Positions 928-31,266 of a DNA stretch of 61,194 bases are shown in pieces. Numbering within the stretch: the stretch's first letter is position 1; each line of letters opens with the position of its first letter. Both the position numbers and the translations under genes were made by a program. Under the pieces are notes generated by a model that saw only the letters and a program-made list of their open reading frames with translations, was not told where the DNA came from and made no database searches. Origin of the DNA: Prevotella sp. (GTDB lineage: Bacteria > Bacteroidota > Bacteroidia > Bacteroidales > Bacteroidaceae); contig JAFUZD010000118.1 in the NCBI GenBank assembly GCA_017476785.1, forward strand, positions 1 through 61,194. Reading direction: 5' to 3'.

Positions 928-1848
928 TCAATTCTCAATTTTCAAGGCTTTGTACATCTTATTGACGCACTTTTTCTTTTGATCTTGGTCTGGATGGACG
1001 TATAGGTCCATCGTCGTGCTCAGACTGGTGTGCCCCAGAATAACACTCACCGTCTTGTAGTCGCAGTGGTTCTCAATGCAGCGCGTGGCAAAGGAGTGGC
1101 GCAGTCCGTGGAACTTCAGCTTCGGGATGCCCAGCAAGCACAAGATGCGGTCGAGATGCCGGCTATACGTGCGCGGCTCAGTCGGCTTGGCACCGTTGGT
1201 CAGCACGAAGTCGTCGGCATTGGCATTGCGACCAAACAGGCTCAGCACCGCCCCCATATCCCTGTTCATCGGAATCTCGCGCACCGAAGCCCGCGTCTTG
1301 GGCTTACCGATGTAGATGTACGACTTGCGCGCCTCGCTGTCGTACACGCGACTCAGCGTCTGCTCCACACGTATCATTCCGTGCACGATGTCAATGTGAC
1401 GCCAGCACAGGGCGCACAGTTCCCCGATTCTCATCCCCGTGCTCAGACTGATGAAGATGCCCAGATTGCGGGAGTCCATATGCGCCAGCAGATAGCGCAT
1501 CAGCCGACGCTGGTCGGCAATGTCCATCACCGGCAGCCGACGGGGCACCAGCTCCTGCGGCATCGCCACCCGCCATTCGCAGCAGTCCATCCACCGCTTG
1601 CGGGCTGCATAGCGCACCACCATCTTGGCCACCATCAGTATGTCGCGGATGGTCTTCTGCTTCAGTCCCGCCTGCAGCTTACGCAGCGCAAAGGCCTGCA
1701 TCATATCCTCCGTCATAGCCGTGCACGCACCAAACTCCGGCAACAGATGGCTGTGCAGCGTCAGCTGATAGGCCATCAGCGTGGTTTCCTTTACAAACGG
1801 TTTCTTGTCCTCCATCCAGTACGTTGCCACTTCGCTAAATGTTTTCAT
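928..1848 (-). CDS. Tyrosine recombinase / phage-type integrase
   Basis: Site-specific recombinase of 306 aa with a SAM-like N-terminal DNA-binding domain (about residues 1-95) and a catalytic domain. The catalytic set looks complete: Arg in TGMRIGELCAL, a Lys in the IGKPKTRAS beta-hairpin, HGLRHSFATR, LGHTS, and the Tyr nucleophile in MDLYVHPD. The ATG at 1848 is preceded on the minus strand by a TATCTTTG box at 1900-1893. It stands alone: no phage, transfer or cargo gene is next to it. Its 3' end runs into a 41-bp inverted repeat, so it could be a remnant of an integrated element or an invertase-type recombinase acting nearby; the first is simpler. Confidence 0.92.
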   Translation of the reverse strand: MKTFSEVATYWMEDKKPFVKETTLMAYQLTLHSHLLPEFGACTAMTEDMMQAFALRKLQAGLKQKTIRDILMVAKMVVRYAARKRWMDCCEWRVAMPQELVPRRLPVMDIADQRRLMRYLLAHMDSRNLGIFISLSTGMRIGELCALCWRHIDIVHGMIRVEQTLSRVYDSEARKSYIYIGKPKTRASVREIPMNRDMGAVLSLFGRNANADDFVLTNGAKPTEPRTYSRHLDRILCLLGIPKLKFHGLRHSFATRCIENHCDYKTVSVILGHTSLSTTMDLYVHPDQDQKKKCVNKMYKALKIEN

Positions 1849-23770: not shown

Positions 23771-24520
23771 TTACGGCGCAAGTAATCCTTCATATTCCAC
23801 TTCTATCTTCGCCTTGTACGACTTGATGCCCAGAATGTCTTGCAATGACCAGTGGCAATGCTCATATAGGTTATGGATGGCATAGACCAAATGCAGGTTC
23901 TCGGTCTTGTCACGCGGCATCAGCTCGTCCCAATTCCCGATGCTGTCATCCAGATAGAGCACTTGGTTTTCTGAATCATACGTGTCGGGCGTGTCAGTAA
24001 CCTGAGCGTTGTATTGGAGACGGAACGGTATGCTGATGCTATTGGCATAGAAGCCGCCGTATGTTGTTGATGCCATCACGTCGAAAAGTGCTTCCTGCAT
24101 ATCCTCGTTCTGTTCCCATTCCTCGAAAGTCATATCCTCTACCCATAGCGTTCCCTCCACGTAGATGCTCTGATTCTGCCCGCGCTCCTTGGCCGTCTCA
24201 TACGTCTCAATGGTCTGGCGGCGCATTTCGCATAGCGCTGTTTTCAGACGCTCGTTGGCCGCCTCAAGCCGTGTGATATTCTCAGCAGTCCACTCAAAGC
24301 GGTCGCGCATCAGGCACCAGCGATCCTGCTTCAGGTCGTTGATGCATTCCGCGGCAAAATAGAGGATGTCTTCACGGCAATACTCCTTATAGATTTTCGC
24401 CATCCGCCTGTCTACTTGACGGACATTTTCGACAGGCTTGGCCACCAGCAGCCGTAACTCATCCAAACGCTTCATCCATTTCTGTGGGCCACTCTGTCTT
24501 CTTTTCGTACCCTTTCTCAT
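23771..24520 (-). CDS. Unknown 249-aa protein, last gene of the AAA+ cassette
   Basis: Not recognised. The N-terminus is very basic (RKGTKRRQSGPQKW). A helical region follows (about 45-115, with RFEWTAENITRLEAANERL), then a beta-rich acidic part. The C-terminal segment NLHLVYAIHNLYEHCHWSLQDILG holds two His residues and looks like a conserved helix pair. It starts 4 bases after the ATPase stop, so it is probably translated with it. Its base composition is between the AT-rich cassette and the GC-rich chromosome. No signal peptide or membrane helix is seen. Confidence 0.75.
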   Translation of the reverse strand: MRKGTKRRQSGPQKWMKRLDELRLLVAKPVENVRQVDRRMAKIYKEYCREDILYFAAECINDLKQDRWCLMRDRFEWTAENITRLEAANERLKTALCEMRRQTIETYETAKERGQNQSIYVEGTLWVEDMTFEEWEQNEDMQEALFDVMASTTYGGFYANSISIPFRLQYNAQVTDTPDTYDSENQVLYLDDSIGNWDELMPRDKTENLHLVYAIHNLYEHCHWSLQDILGIKSYKAKIEVEYEGLLAP

Positions 24521-24524
24521 ATTT

Positions 24525-25658
24525 TTATATGCTGCTTTCTTTTTCGATGTTGTTTGTAATTGTAGGAGGGAAGTCCGAAGTCTTTAATTCCTGCAAAGCA
24601 TCAGCAGAAGGATTACTTATTTGTATAACTCTACGTGCGTGCCTCATAATCATTTCCTCAAACACATTCCTAATAAATCTCCCATTCCCAAATTGCCATT
24701 CTTTATGCTTTACGATCTTTTCCAAAGATTCGGATAATATGGTTCTGGCGTGCTCCGAGAAGAAATAGGATTCCTTTTTACACATAGTTTCCATTATTCT
24801 CATCAACTCATCAGGGCTATAGTCATCAAACTCTATAAACGTGTTAAAACGAGATTTTAAACCGGGATTTGACTCAAAGAACTTTTCCATAGGCTCCGTA
24901 TACCCAGCAACAATAACGACAAGGTCATCTCTGTAATCCTCGAGTGCCTTGGTTAACTCTGTTAAGCACTCACGTCCATACGAATCCGAATGGTCATTTT
25001 CTGTTATGCTATATGCTTCATCAATGAATAAGACTCCGCCTTTTGCATTCTCTATAACAGCTTTTACTTTATGTGCAGTCTGCCCCTGATAGCCAGCAAT
25101 TAGGTCTGTACGTGAGACTTCTGTGAAATGCCCTTTTGAAAGTAGGCCTATTTGCTTGTAGATTCTTCCTATGATTCTTGCAACAGTGGTCTTACCTGTT
25201 CCCGGATTCCCAGTGAAGGCGAGGTGCAATGTGCTTTTGGGGGAGGAAAGGCCCACTTGCTTCCTAAGTAACTGAACTTTCTGGAATGCAATCAAATCAA
25301 GAACTTTTTCTTTTACCTTTTTTAGGCCAATGAGTTCGTTCAGTTCGGACAGTAGTTCCTCCAAACTTTTCTCTTCTTGAACAGCTTCATTGGTTGTAGG
25401 ACCCTTACACAAATCTATTAGCCGTTTGTGGCCGTAATATCTGATTAAAGAGTCTTTCATTTCAACAGCAAGGGGAATTGTCCTTCTGTCTTTAGCGGCG
25501 GATATTTCGAACAGTATGTTGCATAGTTTTATTGCCGATTGGTCACTGTCGAGTATTATTTCCTGCACGCATCGTTGAATCACGCCATTACCATCTATGG
25601 CATCATCAAGTTTAATCGCATTGTTTAGGAGCATTTGCTCATATTTATTGTAATTCAT
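24525..25658 (-). CDS. AAA+ ATPase, CbxX/CfqX (SpoVK, EccA)-like
   Basis: ATPase of 377 aa. After a helical N-terminal region (1-100) comes the linker ELIGLKKVKEKV and one AAA+ module: Walker A GNPGTGKTT (150-158), Walker B VLFIDEA (209-215) and NPGLKSRF with the likely arginine finger (264-271). The layout matches CbxX/CfqX proteins such as rubisco activase CbbX, SpoVK and the ESX factor EccA, which remodel partner proteins. ATG 25658 overlaps the stop of the upstream coiled-coil gene (ATGA), so the two are coupled and the coiled-coil protein is the likely partner. AT-rich, unlike the flanking genes. Confidence 0.9.
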   Translation of the reverse strand: MNYNKYEQMLLNNAIKLDDAIDGNGVIQRCVQEIILDSDQSAIKLCNILFEISAAKDRRTIPLAVEMKDSLIRYYGHKRLIDLCKGPTTNEAVQEEKSLEELLSELNELIGLKKVKEKVLDLIAFQKVQLLRKQVGLSSPKSTLHLAFTGNPGTGKTTVARIIGRIYKQIGLLSKGHFTEVSRTDLIAGYQGQTAHKVKAVIENAKGGVLFIDEAYSITENDHSDSYGRECLTELTKALEDYRDDLVVIVAGYTEPMEKFFESNPGLKSRFNTFIEFDDYSPDELMRIMETMCKKESYFFSEHARTILSESLEKIVKHKEWQFGNGRFIRNVFEEMIMRHARRVIQISNPSADALQELKTSDFPPTITNNIEKESSI

Positions 25659-26788
25659 AAGATACCCAATAGGTTCATAATAATGTATGCAATTAATAAT
25701 GATATGGAGCATCCAGAGAGGATGTAGGCAATTGTTGTTCGCCTTTTCATAATGTCGTAGTTGCTTGCCATTTTTTCGGCCAAATTCTCTGTCGAATCCA
25801 CAATGTCCTGTTTCACTTTATTTATCTCTCCATCGAACCACTCCAATTTTTGTATATGAGAGATTATTGCTCCCTTATGGTGCTCTACAGATTCCCATAT
25901 CTTGTCTATTTCAGGAAGGTGTTTGTAATCCTCTATTACTTTTTGGAAATCTTGAAGAGAAGACAAATCTTTACCAATAACAGATGTCGTTTCCTCTGTC
26001 TTGTTGATGAATGTGCCTAATTGGGCATTAAGACTTGAAAGTCCATCTTTTTGCTTTGCCAAATCCTGCCACATCTCGTCAATATCACTCAGGTGGGAAT
26101 ATCCTTCGAGCACTGTACGGTATGCCTGTAGAGATTTAATCTCATTGTCAATTGTTGATAAGGCTTGATTGCAGGTGGATATATAGTTGTCTGTTTGGGA
26201 TTGTAAGACAGACATATTTTCTCTTTGGGTATTTATGTCGTCCCATATTAGGTCTATGTCATTAAGATGAACTATTGATGCTAATTTGTTTTTATGTTGC
26301 TGCAATGAGATAATGTCGGCAACAATTGCCTTCATCTCATTCTCAATGGATAGGGGTGCCTTTTTAAGCTTTTCTACGTCCTCTTTTAAAACAGTTACAA
26401 TTGAGGCAGTTTTTACTAATCCTTCTATTGTACGATTTATATCCTTTTGTGCAGTTAGTGCTTCTCCGCTTGCTTTCTCAGCTGCTTCAACAGACGACAG
26501 GATACCAGAGATATATTCGGTGTCTAACGAGTCAAAAGCAGAATATACTTCCCTAAATTCTTTGACGATTTTTCTAAGGCTGTCATTAACAGAAATAAGC
26601 CTGTCTTGAACTTTTCCTATGAAGTTGTTCATCTCTGACCCCGTGACTTTGTGGTCGCCCCACCCAAACAGCCCGCCGTCAACCTCAACTCTTTCAAATG
26701 CTGGATTTGAAGGCAATTTATTGGAAAAACTTTGTATGTGCGCCTTTGCTTTATCAAAATTGTGTTTCTTAATTAACGACCTATCCAT
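25655..26788 (-). CDS. Tail-anchored coiled-coil protein with three 58-residue repeats
   Basis: Not a family I recognise. Of 377 residues, about 50-150 are long helix. Three repeats start exactly 58 residues apart at 161, 219 and 277 (SLQ..., then H-L-x-D/E-I-D-x-I/M-W-x-D/S). One membrane helix lies at the very C-terminus (about 351-375). The N-terminal part has a FGWGDHKVTG segment (41-50). The layout suggests a membrane-anchored rod with a cytoplasmic head. It starts one base after the HNH-membrane gene stop and overlaps the ATPase start by 4 bases. Confidence 0.82.
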   Translation of the reverse strand: MDRSLIKKHNFDKAKAHIQSFSNKLPSNPAFERVEVDGGLFGWGDHKVTGSEMNNFIGKVQDRLISVNDSLRKIVKEFREVYSAFDSLDTEYISGILSSVEAAEKASGEALTAQKDINRTIEGLVKTASIVTVLKEDVEKLKKAPLSIENEMKAIVADIISLQQHKNKLASIVHLNDIDLIWDDINTQRENMSVLQSQTDNYISTCNQALSTIDNEIKSLQAYRTVLEGYSHLSDIDEMWQDLAKQKDGLSSLNAQLGTFINKTEETTSVIGKDLSSLQDFQKVIEDYKHLPEIDKIWESVEHHKGAIISHIQKLEWFDGEINKVKQDIVDSTENLAEKMASNYDIMKRRTTIAYILSGCSISLLIAYIIMNLLGIL

Positions 26789-26789
26789 A

Positions 26790-28499
26790 TTACTGATTAT
26801 TTTCTAATTTGTTAAACAAATCATCTAATTGAGCATTGTTTTGCTTATGAAGCAAGTCTGACTGTTCTTGATTATCTGCTATTTTGTCCATATGTTCATT
26901 AAACTTATTTCCAGCTTGTTGGTGTCGCTCGGCAATATCTTTGGCAACCCTTAACTTCGTATTCGCCGTTCGGGCAACCGTAACATCCATAACTTCTCCT
27001 TGTTTCTGAATAATCTCATTCTTCTTGTCAATTTGCTGTTGGGCATTCTCCTTTCTTAGCCGTTTTGCCACAGCCCGATCAATTAAATTCAATGCCAAAG
27101 CACCTATCAAGCCACTTATCAATGCCCCAAGAAACATTCCGATTAGACTTGCCAAACTACCCAACAAAGGTATTTGAATTGCGAAGACAGGTATTGCCAT
27201 AAGGCCCTTTTCGATGATTTCACTTAACACAATAGACCCTCCGGCAGCAAGTCCAGCAACAACAATTTTTCCTACCTTCATAAGTTTAATACTCAAAGGC
27301 ATATTCTTGTTTTGGGGATCAAGAAGGAACTTGACGGCTTCCTTAATAGATTTGTATCCTTGTTTCAAAAAAATCCACGCCTTTTTTATAACTCCAATTA
27401 CAGGACCGAAGATTGCTGTTGCTATCGTTGTGATCAAAGTATTCGTTGCATTCAGCAGATGTGTCTTCAAGTTGGAGATAAAAGACTTCAATGCATCTTT
27501 AATGCTACCAATGAATGTTTCAAAATTCTTTTGACCTGAACGGAACCAAGAAATCAACTTTCGTATCACATCCTTAATGAGTGAAGCTAACAATCCCATA
27601 ATGACAGACCGCAATGCTTTTCCTCCAATTCTGAATGCTTCTTCCCTTTGCGACTGCTTTCCTGTGTCAATTGACCGTTGTTCTCCTTCTTTTTTACGTT
27701 TCTCGTATTCAGCCCTTGCCTCTGCATCCTTTTCTCTATATTGTTCTTCCTGTTCTTCACTTATATCAAAAATCTCTTTGGGCTTTTGCCCTTTACTATT
27801 CGGGTTGTCGAGCCAATCCGTCATACTTTTGTCACCTTTAGACCGATTTTGGCTCGCATCCATTTCGTTAAGATTGGCCTCGCTGTTAGCAAACTCTATT
27901 TGCTCTTCTTCCGACAAATGGGCATTTGCCTCTGGGTCTCGAATTATTTCTCCTGCAGAAACCGTATGATCCATATCTGTCCCTTTTTCTGCAGACCCAG
28001 TAGGTCTCCCTTGGTCAAAAGCACATCGTGCACCGGGGGCTAAAGTGGCTTCCTCCTTACCTGTTCGGGTCGTATGGGTTACAACATTCCCGTTTTCATC
28101 GTGCTGCAATTTTGCTTGCCACTTGTCATATCTTTCCTGATAGTCAATTTTGTCATTGTGACTTGCAATCTTGCCTTTTGCAAAGTTTTCCGTTGTTTGA
28201 ATATGGGCCGAATCCCTCAAATCAAGTGTCAGGCCTCGATTAGCCTTAATGAAATCTTCACCGGCAACCACGCCAACTTGGTTAATAAATTGTTCCCATA
28301 CAACATTCATTACAGTCTCGCCAATGGTGTCTGGGTTTCCAATCTTTTCCTTATCGACCTCCAAATCACGAAGGTCGCTCAGTTGTTCCTCAAGTTCTGA
28401 CTCTAATGTTTCTTCTAAAACATCAAAATCTATAGAGTCACAGTCCATATCAGACCATACTTGTAACTCTTCTGATGTTTCTTTTTCTATCTGGTTCAT
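26790..28499 (-). CDS. HNH-like domain fused to a hydrophobic membrane region
   Basis: Protein of 569 aa, not a named family I know. After an acidic N-terminus (1-60), residues 161-225 read as an HNH/His-Me finger nuclease core: FDQGRPTG, then MDHTVSAGEI (Asp-His at 177-178), then SEANLNEMDASQNRSKG (Asn at 209/211, Asn-x-x-Lys at 218-221). A charged linker (240-290) leads to hydrophobic stretches (about 295-310, 353-376, 409-427, 432-470) that may cross or insert into a membrane, and a helical charged tail (475-569). It is the largest gene of the cassette, with a 1-base gap to the next. A membrane-acting nuclease or toxin-like effector is inferred. Confidence 0.8.
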   Translation of the reverse strand: MNQIEKETSEELQVWSDMDCDSIDFDVLEETLESELEEQLSDLRDLEVDKEKIGNPDTIGETVMNVVWEQFINQVGVVAGEDFIKANRGLTLDLRDSAHIQTTENFAKGKIASHNDKIDYQERYDKWQAKLQHDENGNVVTHTTRTGKEEATLAPGARCAFDQGRPTGSAEKGTDMDHTVSAGEIIRDPEANAHLSEEEQIEFANSEANLNEMDASQNRSKGDKSMTDWLDNPNSKGQKPKEIFDISEEQEEQYREKDAEARAEYEKRKKEGEQRSIDTGKQSQREEAFRIGGKALRSVIMGLLASLIKDVIRKLISWFRSGQKNFETFIGSIKDALKSFISNLKTHLLNATNTLITTIATAIFGPVIGVIKKAWIFLKQGYKSIKEAVKFLLDPQNKNMPLSIKLMKVGKIVVAGLAAGGSIVLSEIIEKGLMAIPVFAIQIPLLGSLASLIGMFLGALISGLIGALALNLIDRAVAKRLRKENAQQQIDKKNEIIQKQGEVMDVTVARTANTKLRVAKDIAERHQQAGNKFNEHMDKIADNQEQSDLLHKQNNAQLDDLFNKLENNQ

Positions 28500-28542
28500 T
28501 TTTTCAAATCAATTGATGGAGCATCTTTACTTTTAAATCCTT

Positions 28543-28662
28543 TTAAAGAATGTCACTAATCAGTTTAATGACTGTATCCAACGGGGAATTATTCGACGGA
28601 CTTGAGTCTTGGAATACAGTTCCACCCATATCACGAATAGTGTCTAAAAAATTCTTCTTCAT
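28543..28662 (-). CDS. Possible 39-aa small protein in the cassette
   Basis: Short open frame MKKNFLDTIRDMGGTVFQDS... ending in TVIKLISDIL, read directly from the sequence. It sits in line with the cassette, 36 bases after the 83-aa gene and 43 bases before the HNH-membrane gene. The C-terminus could form an amphipathic helix. Codon use looks normal for the cassette. It may be a regulator or antidote-like peptide, or only a leader peptide. Confidence 0.45.
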   Translation of the reverse strand: MKKNFLDTIRDMGGTVFQDSSPSNNSPLDTVIKLISDIL

Positions 28663-28698
28663 ATTTATTATATTAAGTGGTCATTAGAATTAAGCTTA

Positions 28699-28950
28699 TT
28701 ACCAGACAGGATTTTCGTTGCGTGTAAATACTGTCCTTATGGCTTTGCGGGCTTCTTCATCTTGAGCCCTATCGTATGCGGATTGCAATACACCGTTGAA
28801 GCCTTTGTAAGGACAGGGAAGTTCTGGGTGCCGCTGGTTTATCCACGCGAGGGCTTCATTAATAGTTATAGTCTGGTGATTGCGGCAACGGGTTACCGCA
28901 AGTAAAATGACATCATCGTAAACAGTTTCCAATATCCCTTTGTAACTCAT
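28699..28950 (-). CDS. Small protein of unknown function, first gene of the cassette
   Basis: Protein of 83 aa, helical, without signal peptide or membrane segment. MSYKGILE is preferred as start (28950) over 28983, as the longer frame only adds an unconvincing leader. Segments such as TINEALAWINQRHPELPCPYKG and VLQSAYDRAQDEEARKAIRTVF look like two or three helices. It heads the minus-strand cassette, downstream of an operator-like palindrome. Function unknown. Confidence 0.65.
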   Translation of the reverse strand: MSYKGILETVYDDVILLAVTRCRNHQTITINEALAWINQRHPELPCPYKGFNGVLQSAYDRAQDEEARKAIRTVFTRNENPVW

Positions 28951-29009
28951 TTTATTAGGTTTTAGTTTTTGAATGAAACACATTGCTTCGCATTTCAGTA
29001 TATCCCAGC

Positions 29010-29439: not shown

Positions 29440-31266
29440 ATGGACGAATATATCGTTTCGGCCCGGAAATACAGGCCGCAATCGTTTGACACGGTGGTGG
29501 GACAGACGGCACTGACCACCACGCTGAAGAATGCCGTGAAGAGCGGGAAACTGGCACACGCCTACCTGTTCTGCGGACCGCGCGGCGTGGGTAAGACGAC
29601 CTGCGCACGCATCTTTGCCAAAGCCATCAACTGCCTGACACCGACGCCTGAGGGCGAAGCCTGCGGGCACTGCGAGAGCTGCCGCTCGATGGAGGAGCAA
29701 CGTTCGCTGAACATCTTCGAGCTGGACGCGGCTTCGAACAACTAGGTAGAGCACATCAAGACGCTGATGGAACAGACGCGCATACCACCGCAGGTGGGAC
29801 GCTACAAGGTGTTTATCATCGACGAGGTGCATATGCTCTCAACGGCTGCCTTCAACGCGTTTCTCAAGACGCTGGAGGAGCCGCCTGCCCACGTGGTGTT
29901 CATTCTCGCCACGACGGAGAAGCACAAGATCCTGCCCACCATCCTGAGCCGCTGCCAGATCTACGACTTCGAGCGGATGACCATCCGCGACACTATTGAC
30001 CACCTGAAGTCGGTGGCCGAGGGCGAGGGCATACAGTACGAAGAACAGGCACTGGCCATCATCGCCGAGAAGGCCGACGGCGGTATGCGCGACGCACTGA
30101 GCATCTTCGACCAAGCGGTGGCATTCTGCGGCGGCAACATCACGTACCAGAAGGTCATTGAAGACCTGAACGTGCTTGACGCAGAGTATTATTTCAGCCT
30201 CGTCGACCTCGCCGCAGAGAATAAGGCGGCCGAAATGATGGTGATGCTCAACAACATCATCAATAAGGGATTTGACGGCGGACGACTGATTAACGGGCTG
30301 GCCAAGCACGTGCGCAACGTGCTGATGGCAAAGGACGCACAGACGCTGCCACTGCTGGAGGTGAGCGACCAGATGCGCCAGCGCTACGAGGAGCAGGCCC
30401 GACGCTGCGAGACGCGGATGCTCTACCGCGCACTGCAACTGATGAACCGCTGCGACGTGCAGTACCGGCAGTCTACCAACAAGCGGCTGCTGGTGGAGCT
30501 GACCCTCATCGAGATTGCACAGATTACGCAGCCCGACGAAGACACGCCCAGCGCGGGGCGCCGCCCTGCCAGAAGATTAAAACCCCTATTCCGCTATCTG
30601 CAGCGGTCGGTGACCGACGTGCAGAGCAAGAAGCAGCAGACTGTCGCCCCGTCTCCCAAAGCGGAAGCGGAGAAAGTTGCTGCTACCCCATCCATCGCGA
30701 CCAATGAACCGCAGAAGGCGCCACAACAGGCACCGCAGGCTGCAGCCGCTGCGACGCAGCGACCGGCACTGAAAGCCTCCTCGCTGGCGTCTGTCACCCA
30801 CTCGTGGAAGAACCTACGCGAGGCGGCCAAACCGAAGAACAAGATGAACATCATACCCAGCACGCTGACGGGCGACCCCAGCGCGACGAGGGAGGACGAG
30901 CATCTGGAGTTCAGCCAGCAGGACTTGGAGCTGCAATGGATGTCAATGTGCAACCGAATGCCGCAGAAGCTCAATGCCATTGCGGTGAGGATGAAGAATA
31001 TGAACCCCGTCATCCTGCAGATGCCTGCAGTCGAGGTGGTGGTAGAAAACCCGCTGGTGATGGAGGAGATGATGCAAATCAAAGGCAGCATCGTCAACAC
31101 GCTGAAACTCCATCTGCACAACTCGGACGTGACGCTGTCTATCCGCGTGACCGAGCGCCACGAACAGGCAAAAATCCTGACACGCGGCGAACAGTACGAG
31201 CAGATGGAACAGAACAACCCGGCACTGGCCAAACTGCGGGAGCTCTTCAACCTCGAACTGGCGTAA
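29440..31266 (+). pseudogene. dnaX: DNA polymerase III subunit gamma/tau, interrupted by an in-frame TAG
   Basis: Clamp-loader ATPase, normally essential, about 608 codons. Codons 1-101 (29440-29745) hold the SARKYRPQSFDTVVGQ start, Walker A GPRGVGKTT (46-54) and the zinc cysteines (CGHCESC). Codon 102 is TAG (29743-29745), where relatives have Ser in ASNNSV. The same frame goes on at once (VEHIKTLMEQTRIPPQVG, Walker B VFIIDEVHML) to TAA at 31266, with no other damage. An internal ATG at 29767 could restart, but without the nucleotide loop. One base change (TCG to TAG) explains it: sequencing error, a real nonsense mutation, or readthrough. TAG is a normal stop in nearby mfd and menC. Confidence 0.85.

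What the first reader, a model, noticed from the sequence alone, without database searches (positions are those of the whole stretch)
23771..28950. Six-gene cassette with AAA+ ATPase, coiled-coil anchor and HNH-membrane protein: candidate new system
Seen: consecutive minus-strand frames with gaps of 1 base, a 4-base overlap and 4 bases, mostly AT-rich, set between GC-rich sodB and dnaX. Known: CbxX/SpoVK-like AAA+ proteins remodel partners; HNH domains cut nucleic acid. Inference: a membrane-bound, ATPase-controlled effector system, possibly anti-phage. I do not recall a described defence system with this composition. A role in secretion (EccA-like ATPase) or surface structure is an alternative.
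Basis: partly seen in the sequence, partly recalled or inferred. Interest (0 to 1): 0.85.

Follow-up and report, generated by a model that had tools for sequence, protein, structure and literature searches.

The report
Membrane-anchored nuclease and ATPase cassette
Three neighbouring genes, found in the same order in distantly related bacteria and on plasmids, appear to encode a DNA-cutting enzyme fixed in the cell membrane together with a long rod-like partner and a motor protein, probably a little-known defence against viruses.

Summary
The unit is three minus-strand genes: an HNH-nuclease/membrane protein (26790-28499), a membrane-anchored repeat coiled-coil protein (25655-26788) and a CbbX/SpoVK-type AAA+ ATPase (24525-25658). 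They are AT-rich (39.6% GC against 56.2%) and in the same order elsewhere: of 30 related loci with room downstream, 28 have the coiled-coil gene and 29 the ATPase, mostly in Bacillota and Bacteroidota; also on two Lactococcus plasmids and one virus-like contig. The 249-, 39- and 94-aa ORFs were not found in those loci. HNH residues are near-invariant and the predicted model has beta-beta-alpha order. Many Bacillota sets add a small membrane protein whose tail resembles the nuclease protein's. The coiled-coil protein has 58-residue repeats, 3 here and 22 near-identical ones in one relative. Flanking genes match more PADLOC families than control regions do (177 against 57); WYL-regulator genes lie directly upstream in at least 5 of 35 loci. 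Best reading: a horizontally moving anti-phage/anti-plasmid system with a membrane-tethered, ATPase-controlled nuclease. The only catalogued resemblance found is PADLOC's unnamed candidate PDC-M40B. Function and mechanism are inferred; nothing was tested at the bench.

The parts
26790..28499 (-). 569-aa effector: HNH-like nuclease domain (about residues 100-280), membrane region, long C-terminal tail
   Evidence: ORF; 35 related loci; conservation; hhalign; model
27810..28028 (-). HNH core, residues 158-230 (R158, R165, D177-H178, N209, N218, K221)
   Evidence: 35 sequences: R158, R165, N209 in 35; D177, N218, K221 in 34; H178 in 33
27081..27284 (-). main hydrophobic (membrane) segment of the effector, residues 406-473
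   Evidence: hydropathy; helices 402-433 and 449 onward
26793..27047 (-). C-terminal tail of the effector, residues 485-569, resembling the tail of the small membrane protein of other loci
   Evidence: tail HMM
25655..26788 (-). 377-aa coiled-coil protein with C-terminal hydrophobic anchor
25748..26269 (-). three 58-residue repeats with motif HLxxIDxxW
   Evidence: spacing 58, 58; long helices 175-229, 233-287, 291-374
25676..25732 (-). C-terminal hydrophobic anchor of the coiled-coil protein, residues 353-371
24525..25658 (-). 377-aa AAA+ ATPase, CbbX/SpoVK type (start at 25658 overlaps the previous stop by 4 bases)
25188..25211 (-). Walker A GNPGTGKT, residues 150-157
25014..25037 (-). Walker B GVLFIDEA, residues 208-215
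23771..24520 (-). 249-aa gene next to the ATPase gene; probably a bystander
   Evidence: no homologue in the 35 loci; GC3 0.64; distant homologues in 11 of 118 other relatives
28543..28662 (-). 39-aa ORF, no homologue found
28699..28983 (-). 94-aa ORF, AT-rich, no homologue found in the related loci

Best explanation
A mobile anti-invader (most likely anti-phage) system of three proteins. Shown by sequence: the three genes occur together, in order, across phyla. Predicted: the effector is an HNH DNase held at the inner face of the membrane; the partner is a long, length-variable helical rod anchored in the membrane by its C-terminus; the ATPase is a CbbX-type AAA+ ring. Inferred: the ring grips the effector's C-terminal tail, as CbbX grips the RbcL C-terminus (recalled), and sets whether the nuclease is off or on; in many Bacillota a small membrane protein with a similar tail competes for or tunes that grip; the rod senses infection or sets the reach of the complex; once released, the nuclease cuts DNA near the membrane, either the incoming phage or plasmid DNA or the host chromosome (abortive). 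The unit itself has no modification gene, so self/non-self would come from place or trigger, not from DNA marks. Rough shares: defence against mobile elements 0.75; membrane-tethered DNase as effector 0.8; ATPase acting on the tail 0.4; cutting incoming rather than host DNA 0.5.
For: Co-conservation: coiled-coil gene in 28 and ATPase in 29 of 30 loci with room; effector and ATPase distances correlate (Mantel r 0.82, 0 of 2000 permutations as high, 30 sequences of each; shared ancestry alone adds to this). HNH: near-invariant D-H/N/N/K in 35 sequences; profile alignment in register with Cas9-type and small HNH domains (HNH region E 0.0015, probability 16%; whole protein E 0.011, probability 4%; membrane region as control E 0.34); beta-beta-alpha order with D177-H178 at the end of a strand and N218 in the following helix, pLDDT about 90. 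Tail sharing: an HMM of 33 effector tails finds the small protein at E < 1e-5 in 14 of 18 segments examined, and among 4005 sequences scored nothing but effectors and these small proteins up to E 0.1. Context: 177 PADLOC family matches for 287 flanking genes against 57 for 287 control genes; the former include CBASS cyclase and E2, type III restriction, type I and II methyltransferases, AbiE and AbiL. WYL gene directly upstream and co-oriented in at least 5 of 35 loci. Mobility: Lactococcus plasmids, one copy near type I restriction genes and beside an IS982; virus-like contig beside recombinase-like genes; base composition. Modularity: the same membrane part with other nuclease motifs or partners.
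Against: No experiment. The PADLOC comparison counts families, several per gene, and only the first 25 of each list are shown; the control also held defence-model matches (a type II nicking endonuclease model, AriB, Hhe, PDC-S37, PDC-S04, reverse-transcriptase models, pVip). The HNH call passes no Pfam cut-off and the profile probability is low. Membrane topology rests on hydropathy and a model of pTM 0.45. Nothing shows that the ATPase touches the tail. The structure comparison gave no match for the HNH part. By phylum the effector tree is nearly coherent, so the transfers seen are within phyla. The phage record collection has no match.
Confidence: 0.6

Rival explanations
1. Abortive toxin module: the nuclease is normally restrained by the ATPase/coiled-coil complex and, when phage disturb it, cuts the host chromosome. 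A sub-version of the best explanation, opposed to cutting incoming DNA at the membrane.
For: The HNH effector ZorE of Zorya II nicks bacterial as well as phage DNA during defence (PMC11890865, passages); no modification gene in the three-gene unit.
Against: A permanent membrane anchor on the nuclease would limit its access to the chromosome; SNIPE shows that such an anchor can serve to cut DNA during injection (PMC13190303, abstract and passages).
Confidence: 0.3
2. Not defence but a membrane-linked stress or envelope-maintenance complex whose AAA+ protein remodels membrane partners; the HNH-like domain is structural or acts on RNA.
For: CbbX/SpoVK/EccA relatives are remodellers (their roles recalled); no bench test of defence.
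Against: Patchy: of 199 related genomes only the window's own has a close match and two have distant ones; defence-rich flanks; plasmid and virus-contig carriage; HNH residues kept in 33-35 of 35 sequences.
Confidence: 0.15
3. Interbacterial or polymorphic toxin with its delivery ATPase (type VII-like).
For: EccA-type AAA+ similarity; WHH-like nuclease motif in two relatives (E 0.015 and 0.088, under the cut-off).
Against: The nuclease domain lies N-terminal of the membrane part; no gene beyond the three was common to the loci; the EccA match covers only its AAA+ half. Export signals and secretion genes were not searched for.
Confidence: 0.05

Closest known systems
PADLOC candidate PDC-M40 (component B)
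   Same: PDC-M40B profile matches the 569-aa protein over residues 98-508 (43 bits, E 6e-12) and, better, a relative paired with a TerB protein (157 bits)
   Different: weak match; no other of the five window proteins scanned matched a PDC-M40 model; no paper listed for the term PDC-M40 (0 occurrences in the rows shown)
SNIPE (DUF4041/GIY-YIG membrane nuclease)
   Same: nuclease held at the inner membrane facing the cytoplasm; variable-length region (PMC13190303, abstract and passages)
   Different: single protein, GIY-YIG not HNH; no DUF4041 or GIY-YIG match here
Zorya type II
   Same: membrane complex with long cytoplasmic helical extension plus HNH effector (PMC11890865, passages)
   Different: no MotA/MotB-like match here; here the nuclease itself has the membrane part; AAA+ ATPase instead of ion motor
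CbbX (Rubisco activase)
   Same: AAA+ core, E 6e-61 to solved CbbX; Walker A/B and pore-loop GYxG kept in the family
   Different: 250.5 bits against an equivalog cut-off of 459.25; different operon
EccA (type VII secretion ATPase)
   Same: AAA+ core
   Different: match lacks the N-terminal half of EccA

Membership tests
PADLOC PDC-M40 | component B profile match | tested here: met
   PDLC04630, E 6.3e-12, 43 bits, (no cut-off is given for PADLOC models)
PADLOC PDC-M40 | further components of the candidate system beside it | tested here: inconclusive
   no PDC-M40 match in the other four window proteins scanned; the candidate's composition was not available here
Zorya | ZorA (MotA/ExbB-like) and ZorB (MotB/OmpA-like) | tested here: not met
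   no such Pfam match up to E 1 in the five window proteins (25 of 26 families shown for the ATPase, all for the others)
SNIPE | DUF4041 and GIY-YIG nuclease in one membrane protein | tested here: not met
   no such Pfam match up to E 1
SNIPE-like mode of action | cuts phage DNA at the membrane during injection | not testable with these tools
   needs a bench assay
CbbX | equivalog model TIGR02880 over its cut-off | tested here: not met
   250.5 bits, cut-off 459.25
CbbX/SpoVK-type AAA+ superfamily | AAA+ core and AAA_lid_6 | tested here: met
   PF00004 69 bits, PF17866 58 bits, both over cut-off
Type VII EccA | equivalog TIGR03922 over its cut-off, including the N-terminal half | tested here: not met
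   233.5 bits, cut-off 466.65, profile 262-528 of 557
HNH nuclease superfamily | curated family match | tested here: not met
   no HNH Pfam match up to E 1 for the 569-aa protein
HNH nuclease superfamily | D-H ... N ... N..K residues in beta-beta-alpha order | tested here: met
   (prediction only)
HNH nuclease superfamily | fold match to a solved HNH enzyme | tested here: inconclusive
   one search lists other, mostly helical, matches; whole-protein model, second look only

The most novel reading that the evidence does not exclude
A previously undescribed class of immune system in which a membrane-tethered HNH DNase is gated through its C-terminal tail by a CbbX-type AAA+ ring, with a tail-mimic membrane protein as tuner and a tandem-repeat rod, expandable by DNA recombination (3 repeats here, 22 in one relative), as sensor or ruler; the membrane-plus-nuclease part is a chassis that swaps nuclease types and partners (coiled coil with or without AAA+, TerB, glycine-rich membrane protein).
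Probability: 0.3. Interest if true: 0.88.

Novelty: new variant of a known kind. Interest (0 to 1): 0.72.

Why it matters
If true, it adds a membrane-level DNA-cutting immunity with its own protein-remodelling switch, gives a testable answer to how a nuclease without sequence marks spares the host, and offers an unusual case of a defence protein whose length changes by repeat expansion. It would also give a mechanism to an unnamed PADLOC candidate family.

Tried and rejected
Six-gene unit: rejected. Type VII secretion, sporulation (SpoVK) and Rubisco roles: rejected on equivalog cut-offs and on occurrence in Bacteroidota. Empty-site test at sodB-dnaX: not possible; in the genus sample dnaX (110 of 120 genomes) and sodB (39 of 120) lie far apart where both are on one contig, the nearest pair being about 14 kb apart (G034). 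Structure comparison of the effector model: no HNH match listed. Phage records: no match. Virus-contig scans with single proteins confirmed nothing. Other AAA+ plasmid hits (Peptoclostridium, Bacteroides) show no effector in their annotation and were not followed. Literature: in ten searches (listings, plus passages of seven papers) I recognised no paper describing this gene set; the library lacks most subscription papers, and the paper that I looked up by DOI for the antiphage systems of lactococcal plasmids (DOI recalled) is not held, so the Lactococcus copies may already have a name there; I saw the names of its systems only in a passage of PMC13335696. Left out: alignment A12 and the coiled-coil model omit L017 and L043 (very long) and L042 and L047 (no match by phmmer); A11 omits L031 (broken) and L048 (fragment); the conservation count omits the same two. 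Flanking-gene scans dropped 6 of 293 listed ORFs, among them both of L048; the control took 287 of 296 ORFs from 20 regions of 13 of these genomes. One of the 29 HNH sequences used (L141) looks like a wrong-strand reading. The genome scan used two short peptide patterns, so the 35 loci are a lower bound.
Full report
What is there. The first three are AT-rich: 39.6% GC over 24525-28499 against 56.2% in the window outside 23771-29000; their GC3 is 0.37-0.40 against 0.72-0.79 in four other genes of the window; the 249-aa gene (GC3 0.64) resembles the chromosome more. The ATPase most likely starts at 25658, overlapping the previous stop by 4 bases.

Relatives. The 569-aa protein is rare nearby: of 199 related genomes, only the window's own has a close match and two have distant ones (29-31% identity over the membrane half). 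Two Lactococcus plasmids carry it at 40% identity over 86%; in the L. lactis copy it is followed by a 124-aa protein, a coiled-coil protein (25% identity over the aligned part) and the ATPase (49%), and the L. cremoris copy has the same gene order. The latter lies near type I restriction genes and beside an IS982 copy. A scan of the species-genome collection with two peptide patterns gave 35 loci with 38-71% identity: mostly Bacillota and Bacteroidota, one bin labelled Spirochaetes and one labelled Acetobacter. Of the 30 loci with at least 2.5 kb after the effector, 28 have a coiled-coil homologue and 29 the ATPase; the exceptions are L042 (ATPase, but a different gene in the coiled-coil place) and L047 (neither by this test, though a coiled-coil-like gene follows, read by eye); L015, L021, L029, L038 and L048 lacked room. 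Effector and ATPase distances correlate (r 0.82 over 30 sequences of each, 0 of 2000 permutations as high). In a sample of 348 Bacillota genomes around G612, 4 had the membrane part: G612 itself (the genome of L046) and three others, one of them a further complete set. The effector tree groups by phylum nearly cleanly, but within Bacillota close copies sit in different families (Erysipelotrichaceae, Oscillospiraceae, Carnobacteriaceae and Bacillaceae, by record title, in one supported group). One virus-like contig, among 33 pattern matches, carries the effector at 53% identity; the rod and ATPase genes after it and the recombinase-like and helix-turn-helix genes before it were read by eye. The phage records have no match.

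The effector. Pfam finds nothing at its cut-off. In 35 sequences (window, one Lactococcus, 33 loci) R158, R165 and N209 are invariant, D177, N218 and K221 are kept in 34 and H178 in 33. A profile alignment puts D177-H178, N209 and N218 on the matching positions of Cas9-type and small HNH domains: E 0.0015 and probability 16% for the HNH region, E 0.011 and 4% for the whole protein, E 0.34 for the membrane part as control, each a single comparison. The predicted model is confident from about residue 100 to 280 and shows strand 174-178, strand 210-214 and helix 215-221, the order expected of an HNH core. The rest is helices with a hydrophobic stretch around 406-473 and a long tail helix; pTM is only 0.45. 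The structure comparison listed no HNH match, so the call rests on motif, profile and model order. That H178 and N218 are the catalytic pair is by analogy with Cas9 (recalled).

The rod. The coiled-coil protein ends in a hydrophobic anchor. It has 58-residue repeats starting with HLxxIDxxW at residues 174, 232 and 290. In L017 the protein has 1579 residues with 22 such motifs at exact 58-residue spacing, coded by a 174-base tandem array of 21.9 copies, 92% matching (98% as 348-base units). Elsewhere spacings of 47, 51, 54 and 58 recur, with others (33, 68, 82 and more), some proteins show no motif, and length runs from 228 to 1579 residues. The model is helical nearly throughout, one long helix per repeat (mean pLDDT 73, pTM 0.34).

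The small protein and the shared tail. In many Bacillota loci a gene of about 115-135 codons with an N-terminal hydrophobic segment lies between effector and rod. An HMM of 33 effector tails finds it at E below 1e-5 in 14 of 18 segments after the effector (L018 at 0.07; L031, L035 and L046 none); in a set of 4005 sequences nothing but effectors and these small proteins scored up to E 0.1. In the window and in six Bacteroidota sets (L014, L016, L017, L022, L025, L040) effector and rod genes overlap or are under 50 bases apart, leaving no room for it. A tail shared by two membrane proteins suggests a common partner; the CbbX-type ATPase, whose pore-loop tyrosine is kept in at least 90% of 31 sequences, is the natural candidate, because CbbX acts on the RbcL C-terminus (recalled). 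This is inference.

Context. PADLOC matches at E up to 1e-15 among 287 flanking genes of 34 loci: 72, 56 and 49 families, including type III restriction, CBASS cyclase and E2, AbiL in two of the three sets, AbiEi/AbiEii, type I and II methyltransferases, GajB (11 of the 25 rows shown) and several candidates. The same for 287 genes from 20 other regions of 13 of these genomes: 2, 13 and 42 families; 23 of the 25 rows shown of the 42 are GajB models with one member each, and the others include a type II nicking-endonuclease model, AriB, Hhe, PDC-S37, PDC-S04, PDC-S72, reverse-transcriptase models and pVip. So the control is not empty of defence models; among the rows shown, CBASS, Abi, methyltransferase and type III restriction models appear only beside the cassette. 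These are family counts, not gene counts, and only the first 25 rows of each list are shown. A WYL-domain gene sits directly upstream in the same orientation in L024, L029, L040, L044 and L045 (at least 5 of 35; not every upstream gene was scanned), and upstream of the two-gene variant in G053. WYL proteins are described as regulators of defence systems (PMC4012209, passages).

Variants. The membrane part occurs with other pieces: two same-genus genomes have it with a WHH-like motif (Pfam WHH E 0.015 and 0.088, under cut-off) and a coiled-coil partner, no ATPase found; a Variovorax plasmid has a two-gene form; L012 pairs it with a TerB-domain protein (24.7 bits, cut-off 24.4), and L184 and L185 with TerB-like proteins read by eye; L177 and L178 with a glycine-rich hydrophobic protein, L177 also with OLD-like and WYL-like genes nearby, all read by eye. 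PADLOC's PDC-M40B matches L012's effector at 157 bits and the window's at 41-43.

Reading. A mobile defence cassette built on a membrane-anchored HNH nuclease is the best-supported explanation. What it works like: SNIPE (a membrane nuclease that cuts phage DNA during injection, PMC13190303, abstract and passages) and Zorya II (membrane complex with helical extension and HNH effector, PMC11890865, passages). It is a member of neither: their defining domains were tested and not met. In ten literature searches I recognised no description of this set, with the limits stated under Tried and rejected.

Noticed in passing
window 29743-29745 (+): The dnaX frame (29440-31266) holds one in-frame TAG. 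The open frame around the downstream part is 506 aa here and about 570-740 aa in most of the 110 matched genomes of 120 searched (shorter in a few, some at contig ends); the search query was the part after the stop. Four of 44 long ORFs in the window end in TAG, so reassignment is unlikely; an assembly error or a real lesion are the simple options.
   Followed up: partly
L017:11484-15303: 174-base tandem array of about 22 near-identical copies inside the coiled-coil gene, 98% matching as 348-base units: recent repeat expansion.
   Followed up: partly
L031:8887-10521: The effector reading frame of Streptococcus ovuberis is broken (one TAG and one TAA inside) while coiled-coil and ATPase genes stay open.
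   Followed up: no
L177:5159-7659 and L178:109-3037: Relatives of the effector paired with a glycine-rich hydrophobic partner; in L177 near OLD-like and WYL-like genes (by eye), a possible further defence type.
   Followed up: partly
L012:9065-9799, L184:3193-3591, L185:8147-8722: TerB (L012, Pfam) or TerB-like (L184, L185, by eye) proteins next to membrane HNH effectors.
   Followed up: partly
window 928-1848 (-): Integrase-family gene about 22 kb from the cassette (PF00589 match at 985-1479, 85.7 bits).
   Followed up: no
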